A stretch of DNA of 12,500 nucleotides from Actinidia chinensis. Its lineage: Eukaryota; Streptophyta; Magnoliopsida; Ericales; Actinidiaceae. The stretch covers positions 11,869,076 through 11,881,575 of the forward strand of contig CM018901.1 of assembly GCA_009663005.1 (NCBI GenBank), in the 5' to 3' direction. The notes beneath the pieces were generated by a model. The model was not told where the DNA came from and did no database searches. It was given only the letters and a program-made list of their open reading frames with translations. Shown in pieces: positions 1-12,462 of the stretch (its first letter is position 1; every line of letters starts with the position of its first letter). Made by a program: the position numbers and the translations under genes.

Positions 1-326
1 GCTGGGTGTTTCCAATGTACGGGGGAGCAGCCCGGCTCTTCCGCCCCTGATTTGTTCCCTTAGGTGCTGTTGTATGGATGCCATCTGTCAGTGATCAATT
101 GAATTTGTCATGACGGTTCGCTCGCGAAACGATGCGCCCCTGTGCCGCGTTTGGCTCAGTTCCCGCCTCTTCGAGTTCCTTTTTAGGGCATCGCTATTTC
201 CCACATTTTCGTCGTTGTAGCAACTTCTAGAGAGAGAAGGAGATCATAGTTTTGCGTCCTCTGCACCATTTCCTGGCGGCTGTGATTATACTGTTACGCG
301 TCGGAAGAGCGCCCCCATTCGATACG
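1..326 (+). promoter_or_regulatory. Upstream region and possible first (non-coding) exon of the antisense gene
   Basis: No convincing protein frame was seen here. The stretch has a purine-rich run (tctagagagagaaggagatc, about 227-246) and ends at a good plant 5' splice site, acggtaagt, whose GT is at 327-328. The simplest reading is promoter plus 5' untranslated leader of the plus-strand accessory gene. No clear TATA box was found, and the transcription start cannot be placed. It may also include internal DNA between that gene and the unseen 3' LTR. Confidence 0.3.
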
Positions 327-521
327 GTAAGTCACTATTTCTCTGGGCCTCTTTTGTACATTTGCTTAGAATGCCATTCAAATCTCCGTCGTAGTCCGAC
401 GTCTTACAAATCATTGAATAGGGTTCGGGTCAGACCCGATTGGAGTAATTTGGGTTACCTAGATTCAACCTCGCTCCTTGGAGCGCTTTAAGCCCCTCTG
501 ACCATCTGCCTCCACTTTCAG
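327..521 (+). other. Candidate spliceosomal intron 1 of the antisense gene (195 bp)
   Basis: The donor cg|gtaagt matches the plant consensus well. The acceptor at 512-521 is ccactttcag, after which gacATGG places a start codon four bases into the next exon (ATG at 525-527). The 195 bp length is normal for a plant intron. Splicing is inferred from the sites only. An open frame crosses part of this stretch (252-491), but its product resembles nothing recognisable. Confidence 0.45.
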
Positions 522-1101
522 GACATGGCGTTGAATCGGGCTTAAATGCTTGTTCGCAATAGTGAGGCCTTAGCCTAATTCCGTGTTGACCATAGGATTC
601 CTGACGATGTAGTAATAGAGCGCCCCGAGTCCAAACGATGACGCGGATTGGGTGGAAGGAGAGGTGATCGATGCCCATTCGACCTGGTCATTTACCAAGC
701 AGGGCTTCGATTCCCCTCAGTAAACTCTTGAGATCCATCATTCTACCTGCGAGCTCCACTTTTATGCAAGTCTCTGTGAACTTTGTCCGAACCGTGCTGG
801 CGGTGGTGGTAGAGTGGTAGAAGGCTTTGATGTAGACAGACGGATTAGAGTTTACCGTGGACGATTGTTTCATGTTTATGCGTGGTCAAGCTAGGTAAAA
901 AACCCTGAGACCCAAAATGCTCGAAGGCAATCACTATCTTGGCCTTAGGAAGCCAAACAGCCTCAGACGAGGTTAGTTACGGATTCTCCGGAAAAGGATC
1001 GGTATTAAAATGACTTCCTGGGTTGGGTCCAATGGGGAGTTCCCTGTCAACGGAACCCGACCCTTCTAGGTTCACCTAGGCAAGGGGTTACGTCCCTGTA
1101 G

Positions 1102-1202
1102 GTGAGAATCGGGTGCTTCAACTTGTGATATATTTGTCAAAACACTCGATCATGCTGTATATTAACGGATAATTGACTGTGTTGTACGGTTCACTTTTGC
1201 AG
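1102..1202 (+). other. Candidate intron 2 of the antisense gene (acceptor firm, donor ambiguous)
   Basis: The acceptor cacttttgcag|gattc ends at 1202 and is preceded by a pyrimidine-rich stretch and a branch-like ttaacgg/taattgac region. Two donors are possible: g|gtgagaat with GT at 1102 (101 bp intron) or ctt|gtgata with GT at 1125 (78 bp, near the plant minimum). The 1125 donor keeps the frame GENRVLQL joined to DSIDVLDESDRVF, which reads more protein-like. Reading straight through is blocked by a TAA just before LTVLYGS. Confidence 0.4.
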
Positions 1203-2181
1203 GATTCAATAGACGTTTTGGACGAGAGCGACCGGGTGTTCAGCTTGACAATCGTTACTGTGAACAACTGTGGGCGCTCCCGCAACGTCTCTGATTTACT
1301 AGGCTACATCCCCTTGTACCGGTACAACCATTCCTCTCGAGCCGGCTCATCAAGGGCGGCCCGTTCTTCGCCTCTCCAGATCCGAGGACTCGGGTTTCTA
1401 GGCTGAGGAGCTCGCTATTGACGAGGTCAGTGACTTATTTTGAGGGACCTCAGCGAGCTTCGAGGCTGTGTTAGAGATTGGCCGAAGGGGAACGTTCTCG
1501 CTCCAGGCGAATCGAGCTCTTCCAGCTGCGGACATCGATCTGGGCGATGAGGCCTGAACGGAAGAGGTCCGAGGTCGAAGACGGCGGAAGAGGTTGATCA
1601 AATCCCTCTGCGGTCCTTGGTTTCAGCTCCCATATTCCTGGTTCCAGAACCTATTAAATCTTCCCGAGCTCTGATTCTGACGGTCGCCATCATCGAATGA
1701 GGGAGATTATTGAGCACTCCTACTCTCACAACGATAGTTCATCTGTTGGGTCTCAACTTGAACCGGAAAGAATCAATGGCCCATAGGTGAGGATTTTGGG
1801 GGGAAGAAGCCAAGCCCCAACAACTGATCCCCCCACACTCCCCGAGGCCCATATCTCGTCCATTACAGACCCAGCGAAGATCAGTCCAACGCGCCGTCCT
1901 TGATGGGTGGCAAACGGAAAGGGGAGGAAACAACCTGCAGAGGGAACCTCCGATCGAGAGGGGAAGGGATGTAGGACGGCCGCTGGCACCCGAGCTGTGC
2001 GGCCCCTCAATTTCATGTGGAGCTCGGCCCCAAACAAGTTAACTCGGCGGATATTCTAGGACCATGAGACCTGTGTTGCGCTGGGCAACGCGGTGATGCT
2101 CCCCCCCCAAGACGTCCCGCGGTCATGCTGCTGAGGACCACGGGCAGCATTGGGGGCAAGCTCGTTATGTTGGGGGCCCAG

Positions 2182-2281
2182 GTTAGAATCTTTAGTTCCA
2201 GCTTTCAACTCTGATTGAATGTGTCTGTCCATTGCTGTTCTGTTCTAATCAATCTCTTTTTCACCTTTTTAGTTATTGCAG
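2182..2281 (+). other. Candidate intron 3 of the antisense gene (about 91-100 bp)
   Basis: The donor is ggcccag|gttaga. The stretch contains a branch-point-like ttctaatc at about 2243-2250 followed by a pyrimidine tract (tctctttttcacctttttag). Acceptors occur at 2272 (ttttttag) and 2281 (attgcag); both leave the exon frame GAQ joined in frame to the coiled-coil exon (QRAVSSSLRI). Stops occur in the upstream exon's frame inside the stretch, as expected of an intron. Confidence 0.42.
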
Positions 2282-2902
2282 CGGGCTGTGTCTTCCTCAC
2301 TCCGGATTGTGAGCAGGGCGTGGTGGATCTGAAGGGGGGAGATCTGAAGAAGGCGGAATCAGGACGGCGAGAACCTCGAAAAGAGGAGCTGAAACGACCC
2401 AGTCCGAGCTCGCGGATGCACAACGGTCGGCAGCGAGAGATCGTGATCATTCAGCGGAACCCGCCCAGCAGAAGCCGTTCCGGACCTGAAGGCGTTTGCT
2501 TATGGAGAGGGGGTACAAGAAGCTGTTTAGACCGCGCTTCGAGCGGGCTGGGCTGCGGGACGTGATGAAAGACAAGCTAGCCGAGCCTCCGCCCGGCGTT
2601 TTCAAGAGGGATGGCTTGCCTGTTTTGGAAAGAGCTTAGATCCCACCTGATCAATCCCTCATGGTTATCTCCTACACATTCCCGCCACTCTCTGCCTTTC
2701 TGAGAGCGATATTCACCAATCAATCTGCCCGACTCAATGAAGAGGAATATGAACCCTTCCTGCTGCCGAGGGGATAAAAACAACTGTGGTGGTAGGTGGA
2801 GGCTCACGCAGGGGTTCACAGAGACTTGCTGATCGGGCCGCCGAGCTGGGAAAGATAGAGGGCGACCGGGCTTTAGAAGCCGAGGGTGAAAACCTCGTCT
2901 AG
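2282..2902 (+). other. Coiled-coil-like C-terminal part of the antisense gene product
   Basis: After the third candidate intron, the frames give a charged, Ala/Glu/Lys/Gln-rich series typical of a long helix: DLKGGDLKKAE at about 2326-2358, then AETTQSELADAQRSAARDRD one frame over at about 2391-2450. Later pieces read KAFAYGEGVQEAV (about 2490-2528) and AELGKIEGDRALEAEGENLV to the TAG at 2900-2902. It is part of the same gene as the GLRFP domain upstream. Coiled-coil tails behind such domains are common in plant transposon-associated proteins; a role in self-association is inference. Confidence 0.5.
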
Positions 2903-3696
2903 GAAACTTCCTTTGATTAAATTCATTCCATTTTGTCGAACTTGTTGACTTGAAACTTTTGACAGTTATTGAATATTGCATTTCGGTATGACTGTTTTTA
3001 CCAGTTTCTTCGGCTTTTGATCTCGGTTTATGACATAGCTCTTGTTAAGAACGATTATTTCTTCGAGTCTTGCATAATGCTGGACTTAACCTCGGCCGGG
3101 GTTCATAAGGATGCTTCGCATTCCGCGCGAATTTGCGCTGGATCGCCCACATGTTAAACAACGATTCGTAACTAGGTCCGGTTGGTTCAATGAAACGTCA
3201 TGGTCCACGTTCATGCCCCTATTTCGACAAACGTAACGTCGTTGGGAACCGATGAACCGACTCTTGATGCACCGTTTACCAGTCCAGTTTTGAACGTCGC
3301 ATCTAAATTTGGTCTAAACTTCCGCTGTTATTGGCGTGATTTCGTTGTCCTTCGAGGGTCCTTTAAATAGTTGAAGCACCCTGACTCTGATGAACACATC
3401 ACCATCATTCGAACAACCTTTCTGAGGAGCAATCATCGTCACAAAAATGCCCTTGTCTTCCAGATTGGCTAGGCTTCGTACTTGAAAATCCCCTGTTGTA
3501 AACTCAAGTGGTCAAGATGATTTCCTCCTGGACGTGGGTGGGATTGGCAAGCACTTTTGTCTCATCAACCTCTGCGTCTCAAACAACTCTGTAAGATCTA
3601 CAGCTGATGTTCCCAAAGCTCTGTAGCTTTTGAGCTTCAGTCCGGTATTCGGTGGACCCGTGCTCAGTGGTTCGTTGAAGTTGGCCTCGAATCCCG

Positions 3697-3954
3697 TTGA
3701 CCCCCGCACTTTGGGCCGAGTATCGGAGTCTTGTGGAGTATACCGTTAATCTCAAGGCAACTATCCACAAGACTAAAAAGAATCAGTTGAATGCCCGTGC
3801 CGCTTGCAGTAACTCGCTGACCGGGCCCATGGTTTCCATTATCAGTCAGAAGGGAAGGCTCAGCTCGTTAAACAGTGTTGCTGCAAGATGGAAGCTTGAA
3901 CGTGGACCTCTCAAACCGTTCCTCAAGCGTAGTCCTCTTTTACCTTGTACGTGA
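3697..3954 (+). CDS. Unrecognised 85-codon frame, possible terminal exon or chance ORF
   Basis: The frame starts MTPALWAEYRSLVEYTVNL and runs through a Lys/Arg-rich stretch (KATIHKTKKNQLNARAA) to a TGA at 3952-3954. The family is not recognised. It lies on the same strand as the accessory gene, 0.8 kb beyond that gene's stop, and about 60 bp before an AATAAA, so it could be a separate small unit or a downstream exon. It is unbroken while every known coding part nearby is broken, but 85 codons in this GC range can also arise by chance. Confidence 0.2.
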   Translation: MTPALWAEYRSLVEYTVNLKATIHKTKKNQLNARAACSNSLTGPMVSIISQKGRLSSLNSVAARWKLERGPLKPFLKRSPLLPCT

Positions 3955-4017: not shown

Positions 4018-4171
4018 ATGCTGATTTACTTCTCATTCTATTGTCGCTTGAATTCTTGCAAAGTTTGTCTTTCCATTCTGGCCTTCACTTAAGTTAAATG
4101 ATGGAACTACAGTCCATTCGGACCTTGGTTGCGCTTAACTAATTCTTCGCGATTGAAATTTTAATCGTTGT

Positions 4172-4950
4172 AACTTGTAAAAATTATGGACAGACTCGAG
4201 CATGTAAGCTCGGCTAGCTTCACCTCGAATTTTACCAAGTGTTGCTGATTAACGCGAACGACAGCGTTCGGTGCTTGTTCAAAGCTCGCTAACCCCTTCT
4301 CGCAGATTTATCAAGATAACTTGTAAAAATTAATGGACAAGCGTCGGAGCATTGTAAAGCTCGGCTAGCTTCCTTCGAGTTTACAAGTGTTACTTGATTA
4401 AAGCGAACGAATGCAGTTCAATGCTTTTTCGACTTCTCGGGCTACCCTCCCCTTCTCGCGATTTTGACAGATACTTATAAATTAAAGACCGCTCAGGAGT
4501 ATTGTAAAAGCCGGCTAGCTTTCTTCCCCTCGAATTTTACCAGTGTTACTGATAAGCGGAATGAAGGCAGTTTGGTACTTTTTCAAAGCTCGGCTAACCC
4601 TTCATCGACGATTTAATTCAAGTAACTTGTAAAAATTAATGGACCAGCTCGGAGCAGGTAAAGCTCGGCTAGCTTTTTCCCCTGATGTACCAAGTGTACT
4701 TGAGTAAAACGAACGAATGCAGAGTTCAGTGCTTTTTGCGAAGCTCGGCTAACCCCTTCTCGCGATGTAATCAAGATGATAACTTGTAAAAATAATGGAC
4801 AAGCTGTCGGAGCATTGTAAAGGATCGGCTAGCTGTCACCTCGATTTGGTACCACGTTTACTTGATTAAAGCGACGGAAGCAGTTTGGTGCTTTTTCAAA
4901 GCTCGGCTAACCCCTTCTCGCGATTTATCCAAGAAACTTGTAAAAATTAA
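4172..4950. repeat. Tandem repeat array, five units of about 153 bp plus a partial sixth
   Basis: Units begin at the anchor aacttgtaaaaatt at 4172, 4318, about 4472, 4624 and 4781, with a partial sixth at 4935. The spacings are 146, 154, 152, 157 and 154. Each unit holds cggagcattgtaaagctcgg, then gctagctt, then a ttacttgattaaagcgaacg block, and ends aagctcggctaacccctt plus ctcgcgattta. A degraded half unit (gcttaactaattcttcgcga) precedes 4172. Units differ more by small insertions and deletions than by substitutions. The array begins about 100 bp beyond the pol stop, in the 3' untranslated part of the retrotransposon, a site known in Tat/Ogre elements to grow satellite-like arrays. Confidence 0.93.
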
Positions 4951-5050: not shown

Positions 5051-6275
5051 TTAGTGGAAGTACTTTCGAGATTGCTGGTATTCCAAGGGTCGTGGGATTT
5101 CTTTTCCTTCTGCATCCTCAGATAGTAAGAACTCCTTCCAGCAAGTTTGATTATTTTGTTGCCCCCTCCAAGTTCGGTCCAAGGCTTCTGCCCGTGTCTG
5201 GTTGGATCTTTGGTGTTTCCAACGACCTTTCTGAGAACGAGACTTCCCACTTCAAACTCTCTCCGTTGTGAAAACCTTCTGGGTAAGGATTAGCCAGTGC
5301 TTCGATACTCGGCATTCTGATGAGTGCATTCTCTACATTTTTCACTCCAAGTTCTAGATCTCGTTGCCAGGGACCTAGTGTTGTTAGACGTGTTGTAAGC
5401 CTCTGTCCGGATTGTGGGAAGACCAACTTAGTGGGATACGGGGATTCGAATCCGAAAGGCAGTGAGTATGTGTTAGTTCGTCGCCTTCAGGGTGTGGTCC
5501 GATAGCCCATAAACGTTTGCCAATTATCGACCCATCGGTACTTTGGCATTCTTAAGTCGTTTTTTGATCCCATTCATGAGAGTTCTATTTGAGGGCCTCG
5601 GCTTGTCCGTTGCACTGCGGAGTAGCTCGAGCGTTTGAGTTGTAGGAATTCAATCTTCAATTGCTCTAACAGACCCTAACTTTGACTTCCTACAACTTGG
5701 TATCGTATCCGAAACGAAGGCCCGTTGGATTGCCAAATCTGGAGAGGATGTTACCTCGAAGAAACCTTATCACGTTTGTCTCTCTGATTTGTGATAGCGG
5801 CTCAGATTCTACCAATTTAGTAAGTAATCGGCGCTTACAAGTAAGAACCTTTGTTGCCAGGAGCTTGGGTAGGACACCTACGATATCCATTCCCATTGGG
5901 CGATAGGGCCAGAGGACTAGTAAGCTGGGGGACAAGTCCCTGCAGTGTTGATGGATCAGGGAGTTTGGAAAGAGTGGACCTTTTGCACCTGCGCACATAT
6001 ACATAAGCGCCTTTTGCATGTAAGGCCACCGTACCCCTGGGAAAGATCTCTATGTGCCAGCGATCTCCCCCCAGAGTGTAATCCGCACACCCTAAGGATT
6101 TCATAAAGTACGGTCCTCGACGAGGCTCGGAATGTACACACACAAGTAAGGGCCTGAATTAAAGACCTTTTGTACAAGTCTCTTGTGGGAGATATCTAGA
6201 AACCGTGCAGGCCTTGATCCATGATCTTATGCGCCTCTTTTCTGTCACTGGCAGCTGGTCGGTCCGTAAATAGTT
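5051..6275 (-). pseudogene. int: Integrase region of pol (HHCC finger, catalytic core, C-terminal GPY/F-like part)
   Basis: A linker with NYLRTDQLPVTEK (from about 6275) leads into the zinc-binding part, with CGLHSGGRSLAH (from about 6085) and YVRRCKRS; the second finger Cys is off frame. The core shows GMDIVGVLP, its first catalytic Asp at 5885-5887, then TKLVESEPLSQIRET. Next are a frame-broken VSD block near 5702-5712 and TPQCNGQAEA at 5594-5623, whose Glu codon (5597-5599) is the third catalytic residue. VGLPTIRTEAY (about 5395-5427) follows. The C-terminal part has KIIKLAGRSSYYL and PWNTSNL (5068-5088), the expected GPY/F-type tail. All three catalytic positions can be traced, but only across frameshifts. 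Confidence 0.9.
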
Positions 6276-6424
6276 CAGAAGGGTCCATCCAGCTCGGATC
6301 CGAGTTGAGTGTTGACAAGAACGGATGAATGTGTTTTCCTCTATACGGGGGAAGAGACATGTCCGACTGCTACCATTTACATGGTCTCCTTCAAAAAGTG
6401 GACGCTTAACGAAGCAAGTGCACT

Positions 6425-6850
6425 GCATGCGTGTAATTCTCTCCCGACCTGCTTGATGGTTAAATGACTCGAAACTCGCTGAGAACGGTTTTTGCCACCT
6501 GTAAATATTTCCATTTAACTCCTTGAGCCTCGAATTGCGGTTGACTGATTTACGACAGTTTCAAATCGCTTATATATGCATAGCTCTAGCACTCCAAGCT
6601 TACGGGCAGACCTAAACGCCTGCGATCAAGCTTCATACGAGCTTCATTTGTTCGGCGCTGGGAAATTAAATTTGAGGCTTTCCGTTCGAAGTTGGCGCCG
6701 TTCGGGACTCTTTCAAACACCACACCTACACCTGGCGCCTACCCCTTGGCGGTTCTTCTTGGCTCCGTCGACGTACATTCTGCCATGCCCACAGAGGTCC
6801 TACCTGAGGTGGGTCCAAAGTAGACCTCTGATCCCCTTCGGGTATTCCTT
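6425..6850 (-). pseudogene. Second RNase H domain of pol (archaeal-like type expected in Tat elements)
   Basis: The block MYVDGAKKNRQGVGA at about 6735-6780 carries the first catalytic Asp in the YVDGA context. FERKASN, then NEASYEA-like and LGVLELCIY follow. The far end has a HA.ALAS motif at about 6405-6425 with the Asp codon hit by a one-base loss. This is a second RNase H: an earlier, Ty3-type one lies upstream in pol. A duplicate RNase H after the first is a known mark of the Tat clade; assignment to the archaeal-like type rests on family knowledge, not on a search. Confidence 0.75.
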
Positions 6851-7039
6851 TAGTTCGGCGGGGTCCTCTTTCTCTTGGTGTCTCTGGATTGACCCTCAGT
6901 TTCTCTCTCACCTCTCCTGTTAGTTTAAGCTCGGACGGTGCGTTTTGTGAGTTTTCCCCTTCCTCTAAGGGTTTGGACTGTATCTGCCCTGAGATTTCTT
7001 TCTGAGTTGTGGGGGAAAACCTCTGCCACAAGTCTGCCA

Positions 7040-7480
7040 ATACCTCTGCCCCTTGCATTTCCCGCCCTTGGTTAAGAAGCTTATGTCAAACTTGGGCCCC
7101 CAAGTTTTCTAGGGACCATTTAGAGAGTCATCCCATCAGGTTGCTTTCATCAATATGGCCTTGAGCGGAATCTCGTTGTACAACCGAGATGGGGTGTGCT
7201 TGAAAGTATGCTGATCTTCGTGAGGTCACCCACTGACTTTCCAGAACAGCTTTTTTCGCAAAGGCAGTATCGTGTTCTGACAATCGGTCAATGTTTTGCT
7301 TGTCAAATAGATTGGGCGCTGGCTTCATTGTCCACCTCTCTTAACAAAACCGAACTCAACCTCGTGTTCGGGACACAGCAAGATAAACGTGGGAGCAATT
7401 CTCCTTCGTCCGGGGTGGATAGGAGTGGAGGCTTTGTCAGGTATTTTTTTGAATTGTTTTGGAGCGCCCCTCGGACTCCT
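7040..7480 (-). pseudogene. First (Ty3-type) RNase H and connection region of pol
   Basis: Visible blocks are SSVLLREVDNEA (about 7325-7362), a LRKAVLES piece, AYFQAHPISVV (about 7178-7210) and the connection end AEVLADLWQRFSPTTQKE (about 6997-7050). These match the usual run in plant Tat elements, from the RNase H fold after reverse transcriptase to the 'LADF..EFSP' tether. The frame changes at least four times. The tether is followed by a Glu/Lys/Ser/Pro-rich stretch (SKPLEEGENSQNAPSELKL) that links to the second RNase H. Confidence 0.75.
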
Positions 7481-7489
7481 CATCCCAAT

Positions 7490-8481
7490 CCCACTAGAAC
7501 TTGGCATTTTTGCGTAAGAGCTTAAAAAATGGACGACATTTATCCGAAGACTTACTGATAAACGATTGAGTGCTGCTTGCCCTCCGAGCGGGTGCTACCT
7601 GAGGGAACGAGAAAGGGCTGTCCTGGTTAGTTTCTTGAACTTCCTTGGCATTCCTTGGCTGCTTCTGGTCAAATGGCAGCATCTGTTCTGGGTTCCTTCA
7701 ATTCCTCGTCTCGTGATTAGATTCCAAGAATTTTCCTCGAGCCCACTCCAAAGGCACACTTTGCTGCATTAAGTCTGAGCTTATGTTGCCGGAGGATTTG
7801 CAAATATCTCGGCCAGTCCCTGAGGTGATCCTACTCTTTTTTTTGCTTTTCAATCACATTTTCATCCACCATGTCATCGATGTATGCTCCATGGTCTTTC
7901 CCAGGACGTGATTGAACATCTTGTTACCATTCGCTGGTATGTGGCCCCCGCCGTTCTTGAAGCCGCAAAGGGCATGAACCTTGTAGCAAAACACTCCCTT
8001 GAGAGCATATAAAACGCAGTCTTCTCTTTGCTCTGGTCCGTGCAGAGCGATTTGGTGATATCCCTCTGTACGCATCAGAAAACCTCATTCGGGCATGAAC
8101 CCGAGGTACGGTCAACCAACTGATCTATCTTTGCAATGAGACATAGTCCTTGGGACAACCCGGTTGAGATTGGTGAAATCGACACAGAGCTCGCCATTTG
8201 CCCATTTTCTTTTTTACGACACGGTATTCGACAGCCAACTGGGTAGATGACTCGACTATTCGTCGGCCTCCCTGAGCTTCTCCATTTTCTTCGATCACCA
8301 GCATCGCGTGCTCGGGAGCCAGCCCTCCGTCCCCTTTGTTTGACCGGTCTAAATCCTTTGAACGTTCAAAACAACTCGTGCCTGATAAAATTTGGGTCGA
8401 TTCCCAGGCATTTCGTACGGGGTCCATGCAAAGGCTTTTCGAGTTAGCTTTCAGGAATTGGATGAGCCGGACCTCTCGCAT
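7490..8481 (-). pseudogene. Reverse transcriptase region of pol
   Basis: Before the palm, pieces of an 'AWTPYEMPGIDPNFI'-like segment lie at about 8380-8430 in alternating frames. Fingers and palm show VVKKKMGKWR, CPKDYVSL (about 8133-8156), FSDAY with the first catalytic Asp, and GYHQIALHGPEQ (from about 8063). KGVFCYKV follows, and the catalytic box YIDD is intact at 7873-7884 within a short frame AYIDDMVDEN. After the palm, FISKSSDKCRPFFKLLRKNA (about 7500-7562) marks the thumb to RNase H transition. The motifs are clear, but the frame breaks between almost all of them. Confidence 0.94.
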
Positions 8482-8581
8482 TCATTTAGGTTTAATTCTG
8501 ACGAGAAAGAACCGTCTGACCTGAGGCCCCGGCTCATCCAAAAAATTTTTTTTTCATTAGCCAGCACCAATTCCTCAGACC

Positions 8582-8950
8582 TTACCTCGGGGTCACGACC
8601 ACATCTTCCAATACTTCTATGTTCCTCCCCCCGATTATTTGAACTTCCTTCATCGCCATCTTGGTCAAAACCGGGCCAAGTAGCACTGTTTTTGCTGCCA
8701 CTTGGTCTCCATAAATGGCCTCTTCCGCCTCGGGGCGTGAGGAACTTATGGCTTGATGGTGTGGAGGCACCCCTTTCATCCTGTTGGCAACAGTCTTTCC
8801 ACAATACATTATATGGGGATGGTATCCACCACCATAAACTCCGTCATCAGTTCTTGGGAGCCTGCTCGGGTTTTGAGAGACACAACGGTTTCCCAAGGGC
8901 CAATGCGCTTGAGCATAAACCCAACTGAAGAGGAGCTCGGGCTGTTTCAA
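8582..8950 (-). pseudogene. Linker of pol between protease and reverse transcriptase
   Basis: A 122-codon frame retains GDQVAAKTVLLGPVLTKMAM (about 8630-8690) and MKGVPPHHQAI with the alternate-frame STPSSHKFLTPRG. These are the usual segments joining the retropepsin to the reverse transcriptase in Tat pols. No catalytic role is expected. Confidence 0.6.
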
Positions 8951-8959
8951 TTGATCTTT

Positions 8960-9262
8960 GAGGATTTTTAATTTCTTTGGGAAATTTTAAATCTAATACA
9001 TACCTTGACCGAGCTTCCAGTCCACAAGGATTCTTTTGACGTCGTATCCTCCGATCCGCAATTGCACCACTAATGGGTCTGGTGAGGCTGTGTACTCTTC
9101 GGTCCGCTCTGGAGAAGGTAACACGTCCCTCTCGATCTCGGCTGTCTTCATTTTCTTCTGCGGTGATTGGAAAAAAACCGAGAGCACCTCGTGCATTTGA
9201 TAATAATGCGATCTCGCTCTGTATGTTGCTCTACAGACGGGGTCATTCGGGCCCCCGCTCAT
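8960..9262 (-). pseudogene. Aspartic protease (retropepsin) region of pol
   Basis: The frame 9262-8993 reads MSGGPNDPVCRATYRAR, then VLSVFFQSPQKKMKTAE, then DPLVVQLRIGGYDVKRILVD, the typical approach to the retropepsin active site. The active-site Asp is at 9020-9022. Directly after it the frame reads WKLGQGMY, but one frame over the same bases read TGSSV, so an intact D-T-G-S-S needs two bases that are absent here. The loss falls exactly at the catalytic triplet, and the protease of this copy as written would be dead. Confidence 0.86.
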
Positions 9263-9269
9263 GTGGATG

Positions 9270-10896
9270 GTGGCCTAGGGGCAAGTCTTCATCCTCTGCG
9301 TTGCTGCCTCTTCTGTCTCCTCCATGTTCGATAGGCCTTTGTTGGCTCAGGCTTCGGTGCTTCGCAGGGTCTTCTCATTGTCCACGAACTCTTTAAGATG
9401 TCCGTCGTGGACCAATTGCCTAGGACAGCCTTAAGAGCTCTTGGATTTCCTCGGTTTTTGTGTGCCCTTTCTTCTCGCCATGGTATGAGCACTCAACGCT
9501 GATTTCTTATTTTTGGATCTCCACTCTCGGCTCCGGTTTCTTGAATATGGTTTGTCTCGATTCTAGCCAGGAGTTTAATAAATCGGTTCCTTAAAGACCA
9601 CATTAATCCCCTGCTGTAGGCCCTTGTTTCGTATGGATAGACCCGTCTTTCCTCCTCTAACCGAAGCCCTCTCCTCGCCCGAACTTTGCCTTGCCTTCCG
9701 TTTTCCCCTTGGACCTCCCTACGTCATCCTCACATCGGGAGAACATCTCGACCCGGGACAATGAGGTCCCGGAGGTCGGTTAGGATCCACTCAGGGTTTT
9801 CCCATAATCTGTCCCCCGGGGACAATCTAAGCTTGTAGCTTGCCACGGCTCATCTCCTCGAACACTCTTCGATACATTGTTGTTTCCCAGTATCGCTTAC
9901 TATAACTTCTGATTGACTCGTTCTGTCTTCTTCAATGTTAAGGCAACGAGCTAACTGCCTTCGGTGCCTTGGTGTTTTTGACAACCCGAGCTAACAAACG
10001 ACTCGTGAGCTGATAAAAGTTTTCTATTGACCCCGGCGGTAGTCTATCGAACACTTCAACCCCAGGTCTCCCTAGGCTGGACGGGAATACTTACCTTCCC
10101 TGCTATGAGAGCACCAATGATTCCACAGAGCCATCATCTGCCTGACGTGGCTCACATGGACCGAGGAATTTGACTTCCCGTCGTACAAGTGAATCCTGGG
10201 CGGTACGAATTTTCTCCCTCCGTGAGATTCTATCCCCTCTATCTCCCGAGAGAATGGGTCTGGAACCATAATTTATTCCCTTTCGTACTAACGGCCCACT
10301 GGATGAGGCCGCAACATCCCACTGGTAAGTCACTCATTTTCCTACCACTTTCCTCTATCTTCTTCTTTTTCTCTTTTGTCTAAGTCACCATTTGACTTCT
10401 TTTTTTCATTGAGAAAGCGTCCCGTAGGTTTTCACTCCTTCGTCAACCGATGCGGGGGAGACTTCCGCTTGCTAGACTCCTCAGTTCTGTTATCACCATG
10501 ACTCTCTGGTTTCAGATCCGCGTACCGGGTCACCTCTCCCGCTGCATCCTCAATTGGCTGTGGCCTTGCGCTCCTCCTGATTTTTATTCCGGATGACTGT
10601 ATATTGTCCTGGCTGGTCCGGCCCAAAAAAAATAAGAGCCGTTGTCAACTAAAATCTGAGCCATTTTTGCATCAGTTTGCTTGGAGTCTTCCCCTATCGT
10701 GACATCCCGGCGTCTCTTGCCGGGGGATAACCGACCTCGCTTCTGCTTGGAGGTGGCCTTCGCCGCCCTCCTGCGCATCAAGCCATTAGTTTTTGTCCCC
10801 CTCTGTCCCAGGTGTCCTGGGGACTTAGATGTCGGGGGTTCTCACCCCGTGTTCGAACGACTAGCCGGAACAGTTTTTCCCTCCCTCAAAAGTCAT
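9270..10896 (-). pseudogene. gag: Degraded gag (structural polyprotein)
   Basis: The start is uncertain; an ATG at 10896, 32 bases after the primer-binding site, is the nearest candidate and soon meets a stop. The N-terminal third is basic (RRRAAKATSKQKRGRLSPGK). The capsid-like part shows GRKFVPPRIHLYDGKS and HVRQMMALWNH (about 10120-10215), then VFDRLPPGSIENFYQLTSR (about 9992-10050), SYSKRYWET (about 9881-9907) and LWENPEWILTDLRDL. The knuckle lies near 9450-9491 and is followed by PRALKAVL and LKSSWTM. These follow plant Tat gag order. At least six frameshifts break it. Confidence 0.85.
9446..9491 (-). other. Gag zinc knuckle of the CX2HX4HX4C kind
   Basis: From the Cys codon at 9489-9491 the frame reads CSYHGEKKGHTKTEE, which with one extra base removed follows C-x2-H-x4-H-x4-C rather than the retroviral C-x2-C-x4-H-x4-C. 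The His-for-Cys form is what I know from Tat-group gag proteins. The last Cys is frame-shifted. Confidence 0.55.
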
Positions 10897-10949: not shown

Positions 10950-11752
10950 TGTTTTTGGGTGAGTTTACAATGTGGAAATCGGGAAGTGATACTACGAGTT
11001 TATCCTACCCTTTTTCAAGCTTTCTTATGGAAGTGCCCACAAAATTGTCGTCCTCCTGTATATCTACACACTGACAACAGTGAGTACGCCGCAGAGTGTT
11101 TCGGAAAAACGGCTCTTCGACTGTCAGTTAATGACTGATGGCTCTGCTCAGTTGCTATGGAAAGTTCCTTCATCCCTCCTCCAAGAAGAGAAGAAGAAGA
11201 GAGAAATTGGATTCCCCCCCCACAAAAAGCTCCTTACCATCTACAGTGCTTTCCGCTTATGTAGTTTACTTGGCGGCGGGCTTCGACGCCCAACGAATCC
11301 CTCGATTACTAGGTTGTGTTACCCTCTTCATCCTTGCAGAGGAGTTGGTTATCCTTTCCTTTCCTGCTATCATGATCCTCCTCGCCCGGATTTGGTCTGA
11401 GCCCCTCGTGCCGTGTCGTCAACATCACTATGTCCCGTGTCATTAAATCGGGTTCCCGCCAAACTTTTTTTGGGGGGGTGGGGGGTGTCGACCGAGCTCT
11501 GGTGTTACTGTTTTGCGTGTCCGTCAAAAATCAAGAAGGTATTCCCGAGCTCGGGTAGGGTTCATTCCTGTACTTATACCGAGCTGGTCTCACGGTATAA
11601 CATTGTTTTCTGTTCCTGCGCGTAGGTCGCAACCCCGATATTAACAACCTTTGTATAGTTCTGAGGCTTTCTCGCTTCCCTCTCCCCCTTTCCTTCTTAT
11701 TTCTTGTTAACTTATTCATATGTCTCATGTCCCTACAACGTCATTCAAAACA
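10950..11752 (-). repeat. 5' LTR of the Ty3/gypsy element (right edge uncertain)
   Basis: The inner edge is firm: on the plus strand it begins TGTTTTTGGGTGAG, two bases from the primer-binding site. The outer edge is chosen where the plus strand reads TCATTCAAAACA, ending in CA at 11752, so that the LTR opens TGTTTTGAATGA on the minus strand and closes CCCAAAAACA, an imperfect TGTTTT/AAAACA inverted end. This gives about 803 bp. The promoter for gag-pol should lie inside, reading leftward, but no convincing TATA box was identified. Frames inside the LTR were not taken as genes. Confidence 0.62.

Positions 11753-12428: not shown

Positions 12429-12445
<17 letters not shown>

Positions 12446-12458
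<13 letters not shown>
12446..12458 (+). promoter_or_regulatory. Primer-binding site for initiator Met-tRNA
   Basis: TGGTATCAGAGCC is the complement of the plant initiator Met-tRNA 3' end, the commonest primer site in plant Ty1/copia elements. It follows the LTR end by four bases (aatt). Confidence 0.95.

Positions 12459-12462
<4 letters not shown>

What the first reader, a model, noticed from the sequence alone, without database searches (positions are those of the whole stretch)
525..2902. Antisense accessory gene in the 3' internal region of a Tat-like retrotransposon
The plus strand carries a multi-part gene opposite to gag-pol, downstream of integrase. It has a GLRFP-type N-terminal domain, several well-kept blocks (FMQVSVNFVRTVLAV, RLVTDSP, AVLEIGRRGTFSL), a coiled-coil-like tail and a clean C-terminus. 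Accessory genes in long 3' regions are known in Grande-type elements, but their functions are little understood. Domain retention despite many frame breaks suggests selection in the source family.
Basis: partly seen in the sequence, partly recalled or inferred. Interest (0 to 1): 0.75.

Follow-up and report, generated by a model that had tools for sequence, protein, structure and literature searches.

The report
Reverse-strand gene of kiwifruit-type retrotransposon
A jumping element in a kiwifruit-type plant genome carries a multi-exon protein gene on the strand opposite to its own replication genes; such backward genes are already known in this class of elements, and the many breaks in this copy look mostly like uncorrected sequencing noise rather than decay.

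Summary
The gene is real, and 525-2902 are its start and stop codons. Frameshift-tolerant alignment to two natural Actinidia rufa proteins covers it end to end at 74-77% identity, scoring 1510 and 1611 against 39-71 in twelve controls. It lies antisense to gag-pol of a Retand-like (Tat) LTR retrotransposon, between pol and the 3' end. Of 26 copies read in the same genome, 14 have 0.3-1.1 breaks per 100 codons and 12, this one included, have 5.5-12.1; gag, RT and integrase pieces here are equally broken. Selection is shown in another way: 14 clean copies give pooled dN/dS 0.18 (0.11 in the N-terminal domain) against 1.1-1.5 in shifted frames. Three introns are seen; splice sites of the first two are intact in every clean copy covering them. 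The protein has an N-terminal helical domain resembling Transposase_28 (below Pfam's cut-off), a basic NLS-like stretch and a coiled coil. Antisense Transposase_28 genes are a published hallmark of Retand elements (PMC11963269): a new member of a known kind. Its regulatory role is inferred.

The parts
1..326 (+). Probable 5' leader exon of the antisense gene, cut by the window edge
   Evidence: A. rufa models P0004 and P0010 are spliced from here to the MALNRAQ start; P0004 74-132 matches 6-326. Gene models, not transcripts.
327..521 (+). Intron 1 (GTAAGT...CAG)
   Evidence: Donor, acceptor and ATG intact in 10 of 10 clean copies that cover it, 4 of 14 not covered; donor 6/6 and acceptor 5/5 columns invariant against 110/202 interior
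522..1101 (+). Coding exon with start codon at 525: N-terminal Transposase_28-like helical domain and RLVTDSP block
   Evidence: Alignment to P0007/P0008; dN/dS 0.11 for residues 1-185
1102..1202 (+). Intron 2 (GTGAGA...TTGCAG)
   Evidence: GT and AG in 14 of 14 clean copies, 96 bases in each; 101 in the window. The aligner set it about 10 bases to the right.
1203..2181 (+). Long middle exon: acidic/Ser-rich stretch and basic NLS-like stretch
   Evidence: Alignment; unnamed natural frames P0050 and P0052 run through this exon to its donor
2182..2272 (+). Intron 3 (GTTAGA...TTTTAG)
   Evidence: Donor GT in 12 of 12 covered clean copies; acceptor AG seen in 11 of these, one unresolved
2273..2902 (+). 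Last coding exon: coiled coil and acidic tail, stop at 2900-2902
   Evidence: Alignment to P0008; helix 451-530 of P0008, pLDDT blocks 75-93
4171..4947 (.). Tandem array, 154-base unit, 5.1 copies
   Evidence: the tail of A. rufa model P0013 translates such units
5054..10892 (-). gag-pol of the element, broken by frame shifts
   Evidence: tblastn of natural P0080; RT, integrase and gag pieces 80-85% identical
10959..11737 (-). Probable 5' LTR
   Evidence: 75.6% match to L004 655-1401, which lies about 100 bases left of that copy's equivalent of window position 1; the 3' LTR of this copy lies outside the window

Best explanation
This is the antisense accessory gene of a Retand-like Tat LTR retrotransposon in an Actinidia-type genome, in a copy whose assembled sequence is noisy. 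Shown: the gene, its strand, its place between pol and the 3' end, its end-to-end match to natural proteins, purifying selection on the protein in clean copies, and intact splice sites of the first two introns. Inferred: a promoter in or beside the 3' LTR makes an antisense transcript that is spliced; because the genomic RNA is the opposite strand, these introns are not removed during retrotransposition and persist in new copies. The protein of about 600-640 residues would enter the nucleus by its basic stretch, dimerise by its coiled coil and contact DNA or chromatin with its N-terminal domain, regulating the element's own expression or integration. My odds: identity and coding nature 0.95, splicing 0.85, nuclear regulatory role 0.45.
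For: End-to-end homology to natural A. rufa proteins. Antisense to gag-pol. Pooled dN/dS 0.18 over 91 of 91 pairs of 14 clean copies, 0.11 in residues 1-185; shifted frames 1.13 and 1.49. Splice sites: intron 1 in 10 of 10 covered, intron 2 in 14 of 14. Basic stretch with 11 K+R to 2 D+E in 45 residues; long confident helix 451-530. Published precedent: antisense TRP28 ORFs in 97% of Retand clusters, predicted to bind DNA (PMC11963269), nuclear product of Grande gene23 (PMC7264820). In A. rufa, accessory and pol models bear neighbouring tags (Acr_00g0053650/60, Acr_25g0000710/20).
Against: No transcript, localisation or binding data were seen. Transposase_28 stays below its cut-off (best 16.2 bits against 26.2). 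The middle of the protein is predicted with low confidence and no solved or viral fold matches. Some clean copies carry several stops (6 and 9 in two). Open length alone does not single out the plus strand: the minus strand holds frames of 312 and 318 codons in two copies. Copies are related, so splice-site counts are not independent. The closest single pairs vary in dN/dS from 0.10 to 0.51.
Confidence: 0.85

Rival explanations
1. The frame breaks are real decay of an old copy, and the blocks survived it.
For: Private differences among the five tandem units in the window are 39 substitutions to 24 indel columns, so real divergence is mixed in. The window copy is 83-86.5% identical to the copies it was compared with.
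Against: 0.34-0.57 gap openings per mismatch in the window copy against 0.01-0.06 in 11 listed pairs of clean copies. Bimodal break rates: 14 copies 0.3-1.1, 12 copies 5.5-12.1 per 100 codons. Clean older copies show decay as stops (up to 9) with few breaks, noisy ones the reverse. One pair has 47 mismatches and 82 gap openings. Gag, RT and integrase pieces have 9.8-11.6 breaks per 100 codons and no stop.
Confidence: 0.08
2. Only the antisense RNA matters (double-stranded RNA or interference with the sense transcript); the protein is incidental.
For: Proposed as a possibility in PMC7264820 alongside a protein role.
Against: Constraint is frame-specific: dN/dS 0.18 in the true frame, 1.13 and 1.49 in shifted frames; start codon and splice sites kept.
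Confidence: 0.06
3. A host gene captured by this element, or a host gene family that only looks like a transposon gene.
For: It has introns like a host gene; some A. rufa models carry host-gene names (P0013, P0022, P0029, P0048).
Against: 76 of 78 hits are A. rufa and the other two are unnamed; no separate host family appeared. The host genome has many copies (48 match rows). In P0022 an AAR2 domain lies beside the accessory homology, which reads as a fused gene model. PMC11963269 reports no TRP28 similarity outside transposable elements.
Confidence: 0.05

Closest known systems
Antisense TRP28 (Transposase_28) ORF of Retand elements (Vicient 2025, PMC11963269; parts 1-3 of 5 read)
   Same: Antisense to gag-pol, between pol and 3' LTR; region of over 5.0 kb inside the published 2.9-6.6 kb; tandem array in the same region; GLRFP-type block with four of six published conserved positions in register
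   Different: Pfam score below the cut-off; two of the six positions differ (V for P46 and F55); three introns, which that paper does not mention (the word intron occurs 0 times); repeat unit 154 bases against 8-100 reported
Grande gene23 of maize (reviewed in PMC7264820, parts 1-2 of 3 read; primary paper not held)
   Same: Antisense accessory gene in a long 3' internal region; nuclear product reported for Grande, a basic NLS-like stretch here
   Different: No gene23 sequence was at hand, so no sequence relation was tested; whether gene23 has introns was not seen
PvRetro13 ORF2 and Smc-type antisense ORFs (PMC7264820, PMC11963269)
   Same: Long coiled-coil segment in an antisense product
   Different: Sequence relation not tested
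HBZ of HTLV-1 (as described in PMC11963269)
   Same: Works-like analogy only: nuclear protein from the antisense strand of a retroelement
   Different: No sequence relation tested or claimed

Membership tests
Tat clade (Ogre/Retand type) | Second (archaeal-type) RNase H between RNase H and integrase (PMC6317226) | tested here: met
   Natural homologue P0080: RT 867-1025, RNase H 1090-1217, RVT_3 1313-1430, integrase core 1597-1693; P0080 maps to the window's minus strand. That RVT_3 marks the second RNase H is recalled.
Retand lineage | RT groups with Retand RTs in a tree | not tested
   No named Retand RT was at hand
Retand lineage | Long pol-3'LTR region (2.9-6.6 kb) | tested here: met
   pol ends near 5054 and the region runs beyond the window's left edge
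Retand lineage | Antisense ORF with TRP28 domain in that region (97% of clusters) | tested here: inconclusive
   Antisense gene shown; TRP28 resemblance only below the Pfam cut-off
Retand lineage | Tandem array in that region (about half of elements) | tested here: met
   154-base unit, 5.1 copies, 4171-4947
Transposase_28, PF04195 | Pfam gathering score 26.2 | tested here: not met
   Best 16.2 bits (6 of 10 proteins touch it at E up to 1); 13 of 46 members at E up to 1, best E 0.0036; three window frames: none
Transposase_28, PF04195 | Conserved positions G21, P25, L34, P46, N47, F55 (PMC11963269) | tested here: inconclusive
   In 44 of 78 family proteins holding the block: G 36, P 39, L 36, N 36; P46 is V in 31, F55 is V in 32. 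G and P are inside the pattern that found the block. Four of six match at 32 of 25,217 positions
Grande gene23 family | Sequence homology to gene23 | not tested
   No gene23 sequence at hand
Nuclear antisense regulator (HBZ-like function) | Nuclear localisation and DNA or chromatin contact | not testable with these tools
   Only a Lys/Arg-rich stretch and a coiled-coil helix

The most novel reading that the evidence does not exclude
The antisense accessory gene of Retand-like elements is a properly spliced, multi-exon gene under strong protein-level selection, whose introns persist only because the element moves through the opposite-strand RNA. Surveys that count uninterrupted ORFs would then have truncated such genes, and the TRP28 ORFs under 600 nt that PMC11963269 reports in some eudicots (Camellia among them, also Ericales) would be single exons.
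Probability: 0.4. Interest if true: 0.5.

Novelty: new member of a known kind. Interest (0 to 1): 0.35.

Why it matters
Antisense genes are a hallmark of a large plant retrotransposon lineage and their function is an open question. A family with clean copies, measured purifying selection and conserved introns gives concrete splice junctions that RNA data can test. It also warns that frame breaks in unpolished assemblies can pass for decay, so other copies should be compared before a broken gene is interpreted.

Tried and rejected
Pfam on three plus frames with X at stops: no family at E up to 10, as the breaks split every domain. Pfam on three minus frames: one weak RT match; on ten minus-strand pieces: one weak chance-type match. 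Relatives in viral contigs and in prokaryote genome contigs: none confirmed. PDB by sequence: one match, E 0.68. NCBIfam: chance-level only. Structure of P0008: mean pLDDT 54, usable only for the N-terminal helices and the coil; Foldseek against PDB and viral models: no match at E up to 0.001. The tandem-unit comparison did not by itself separate noise from decay. The left flank could not be read, so the 3' LTR of this copy was not seen.

Papers: PMC7264820 parts 1-2 of 3 read; PMC11963269 parts 1-3 of 5 read plus a term search; PMC6317226 and PMC12786077 passages only; other papers only as search listings; the primary Grande paper and the paper with DOI 10.1007/s10709-012-9654-9 (recalled as Steinbauerova et al.) are not held. 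That introns in such genes are described nowhere is not claimed: I looked only in searches and in the term search.

Full report
What is there. The window lies in a 638 Mb genome of 1,499 contigs. The closest proteins are from Actinidia rufa: 22 of 22 hits and 76 of 78, the other two unnamed. The contig lengths seen for G000 differ from those printed for A. rufa proteins, so the genome is probably another Actinidia; that is inference. On the minus strand lies gag-pol: P0080, a natural polyprotein of 1,881 residues, maps from about 10892 to 5054, with the order gag, protease, RT, RNase H, RVT_3, integrase. A probable 5' LTR lies at about 10959-11737. On the plus strand, between pol and the left edge, lies the gene of the finding.

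The breaks are mostly not biology. The window copy has about 50 frame breaks but only 5-6 in-frame stops. Against eight other copies (L002-L008, L027) it has 83.3-86.5% identity and 0.34-0.57 gap openings per mismatch; 11 listed pairs of clean copies have 93.3-99.0% identity and 0.01-0.06. I read 26 copies with P0008, covering 28 of the 48 rows (the eight that the tool fetched, and 18 stretches that I chose mainly for length): 14 have 0.3-1.1 breaks per 100 codons, partly the cost of introns that split codons, and 12, the window included, have 5.5-12.1. In one pair there are 47 mismatches and 82 gap openings. Older clean copies show decay as stops, up to 9, with few breaks (all). RT, integrase and gag pieces of the window are 80, 85 and 83% identical to P0080 with 11.3, 11.6 and 9.8 breaks per 100 codons and no stop. 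This is the pattern of unpolished long reads (recalled, not tested on reads). Against it, private differences among the five tandem units are 39 substitutions to 24 indel columns, so real divergence is mixed in. Raw reads were not available; noise is the best-supported reading, not a proof.

Selection. From 14 clean copies I took codons aligned to P0008, dropping stops and broken codons; the stretch that P0008 lacks is not covered. Over 91 of 91 pairs pooled dN/dS is 0.18; by part 0.11 (residues 1-185), 0.24 (186-436), both 91 pairs, and 0.19 (437-632, 45 pairs with 60 or more shared codons). Frames shifted by one and two bases give 1.13 and 1.49 overall and 0.94-1.83 by part. Among the 12 closest pairs single values run from 0.10 to 0.51. 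Without the three most distant copies, by a simpler count, it is 0.21 overall and 0.16 in the N domain, 55 pairs. Methylation-driven decay was not modelled.

Introns. P0004 and P0010 are spliced from the same upstream motif to MALNRAQ. In the 10 of 14 clean copies that cover it, start codon, GTAAGT donor and CAG acceptor are intact; donor 6 of 6 and acceptor 5 of 5 columns are invariant against 110 of 202 interior columns. Intron 2 keeps GT and AG in 14 of 14 and is 96 bases in each; its interior is 40 of 91 invariant. Intron 3 keeps its donor in 12 of 12 covered; its acceptor is seen in 11 and unresolved in one. Mean p-distance is 0.159 in intron 2 (66 pairs) and 0.125 in intron 3 (55 pairs). 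The copies are related, so these counts are not independent. That such introns survive retrotransposition because they lie on the strand opposite to the genomic RNA is inference from the retrotransposon life cycle.

The protein. P0008 is predicted (mean pLDDT 54) with N-terminal helices (blocks 76-89 over residues 61-110), a long low-confidence middle and a helix at 451-530 (blocks 75-93). The middle holds a Lys/Arg-rich stretch, 11 K+R to 2 D+E in 45 residues. Transposase_28 is the family most members touch, 13 of 46 at E up to 1, below its cut-off in every score shown. Of six positions reported as conserved in TRP28, four agree in register in most of the 44 of 78 proteins that hold the block; two of the four lie inside the search pattern. 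No solved or viral fold matches at E up to 0.001.

Compared with what is known. Vicient 2025 (PMC11963269, parts 1-3 of 5) reports antisense ORFs between pol and the 3' LTR in all Retand clusters, TRP28 in 97%, and tandem arrays in about half. Vicient and Casacuberta 2020 (PMC7264820, parts 1-2 of 3) review Grande, RIRE2, Retand and PvRetro13 and note a nuclear product for Grande. Neumann 2019 (PMC6317226, passages) gives the position of the second RNase H. The present gene fits this kind in position, strand, region length and array. It fails the Pfam cut-off, so I do not file it as a PF04195 member; the RT was not placed on a tree, so Retand is the likely lineage, not a tested one. PMC11963269 does not hold the word intron; searches showed no paper on introns in such genes in their listings; the primary Grande paper was not available.

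Mechanism. Most likely the gene is transcribed antisense from a promoter in or near the 3' LTR, spliced, and translated into a nuclear coiled-coil protein that regulates the element. The A. rufa models P0003 and P0004 begin in sequence that matches the LTR, a hint only, since gene models are not transcripts. Neighbouring tags of accessory and pol models in A. rufa (Acr_00g0053650/60, Acr_25g0000710/20) agree with the arrangement. A purely RNA role is made unlikely by the frame-specific constraint; a double role is not excluded.

Verdict. A real, selected and very probably spliced antisense accessory gene of a known kind, in a copy whose breaks are mainly noise. Its interest lies in the conserved introns and in the set of clean copies.

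Noticed in passing
G000 assembly; 12 of 26 copies read, window included: Patches of the assembly look like unpolished long-read sequence: indel-rich, with break rates 5.5-12.1 per 100 codons against 0.3-1.1 in the other 14 copies.
   Followed up: partly
window 4171-4947: Tandem array of a 154-base unit, longer than the 8-100 bases that PMC11963269 reports; the tail of A. rufa model P0013 translates such units.
   Followed up: partly
window 11339-11752 and 11531-11590: N-terminal residues of A. rufa models P0003 and P0004 match LTR sequence read on the antisense strand, a hint that the antisense transcript may start in the 3' LTR.
   Followed up: partly
window 3591-3803: A plus-strand stretch past the stop codon matches the C-terminal extension of A. 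rufa model P0005; further 3' exon, second antisense ORF or over-extended model.
   Followed up: no
A. rufa P0013, P0022, P0029, P0048: Accessory-gene homology inside gene models with host-gene names (methyltransferase, AAR2, insulinase, pyruvate dehydrogenase): probably fused models.
   Followed up: no
window about 12440-12460: TTTGGTATCAGAGCC on the plus strand near the right end looks like a primer-binding site for initiator Met tRNA (recalled), so this element may sit beside or inside another one.
   Followed up: no
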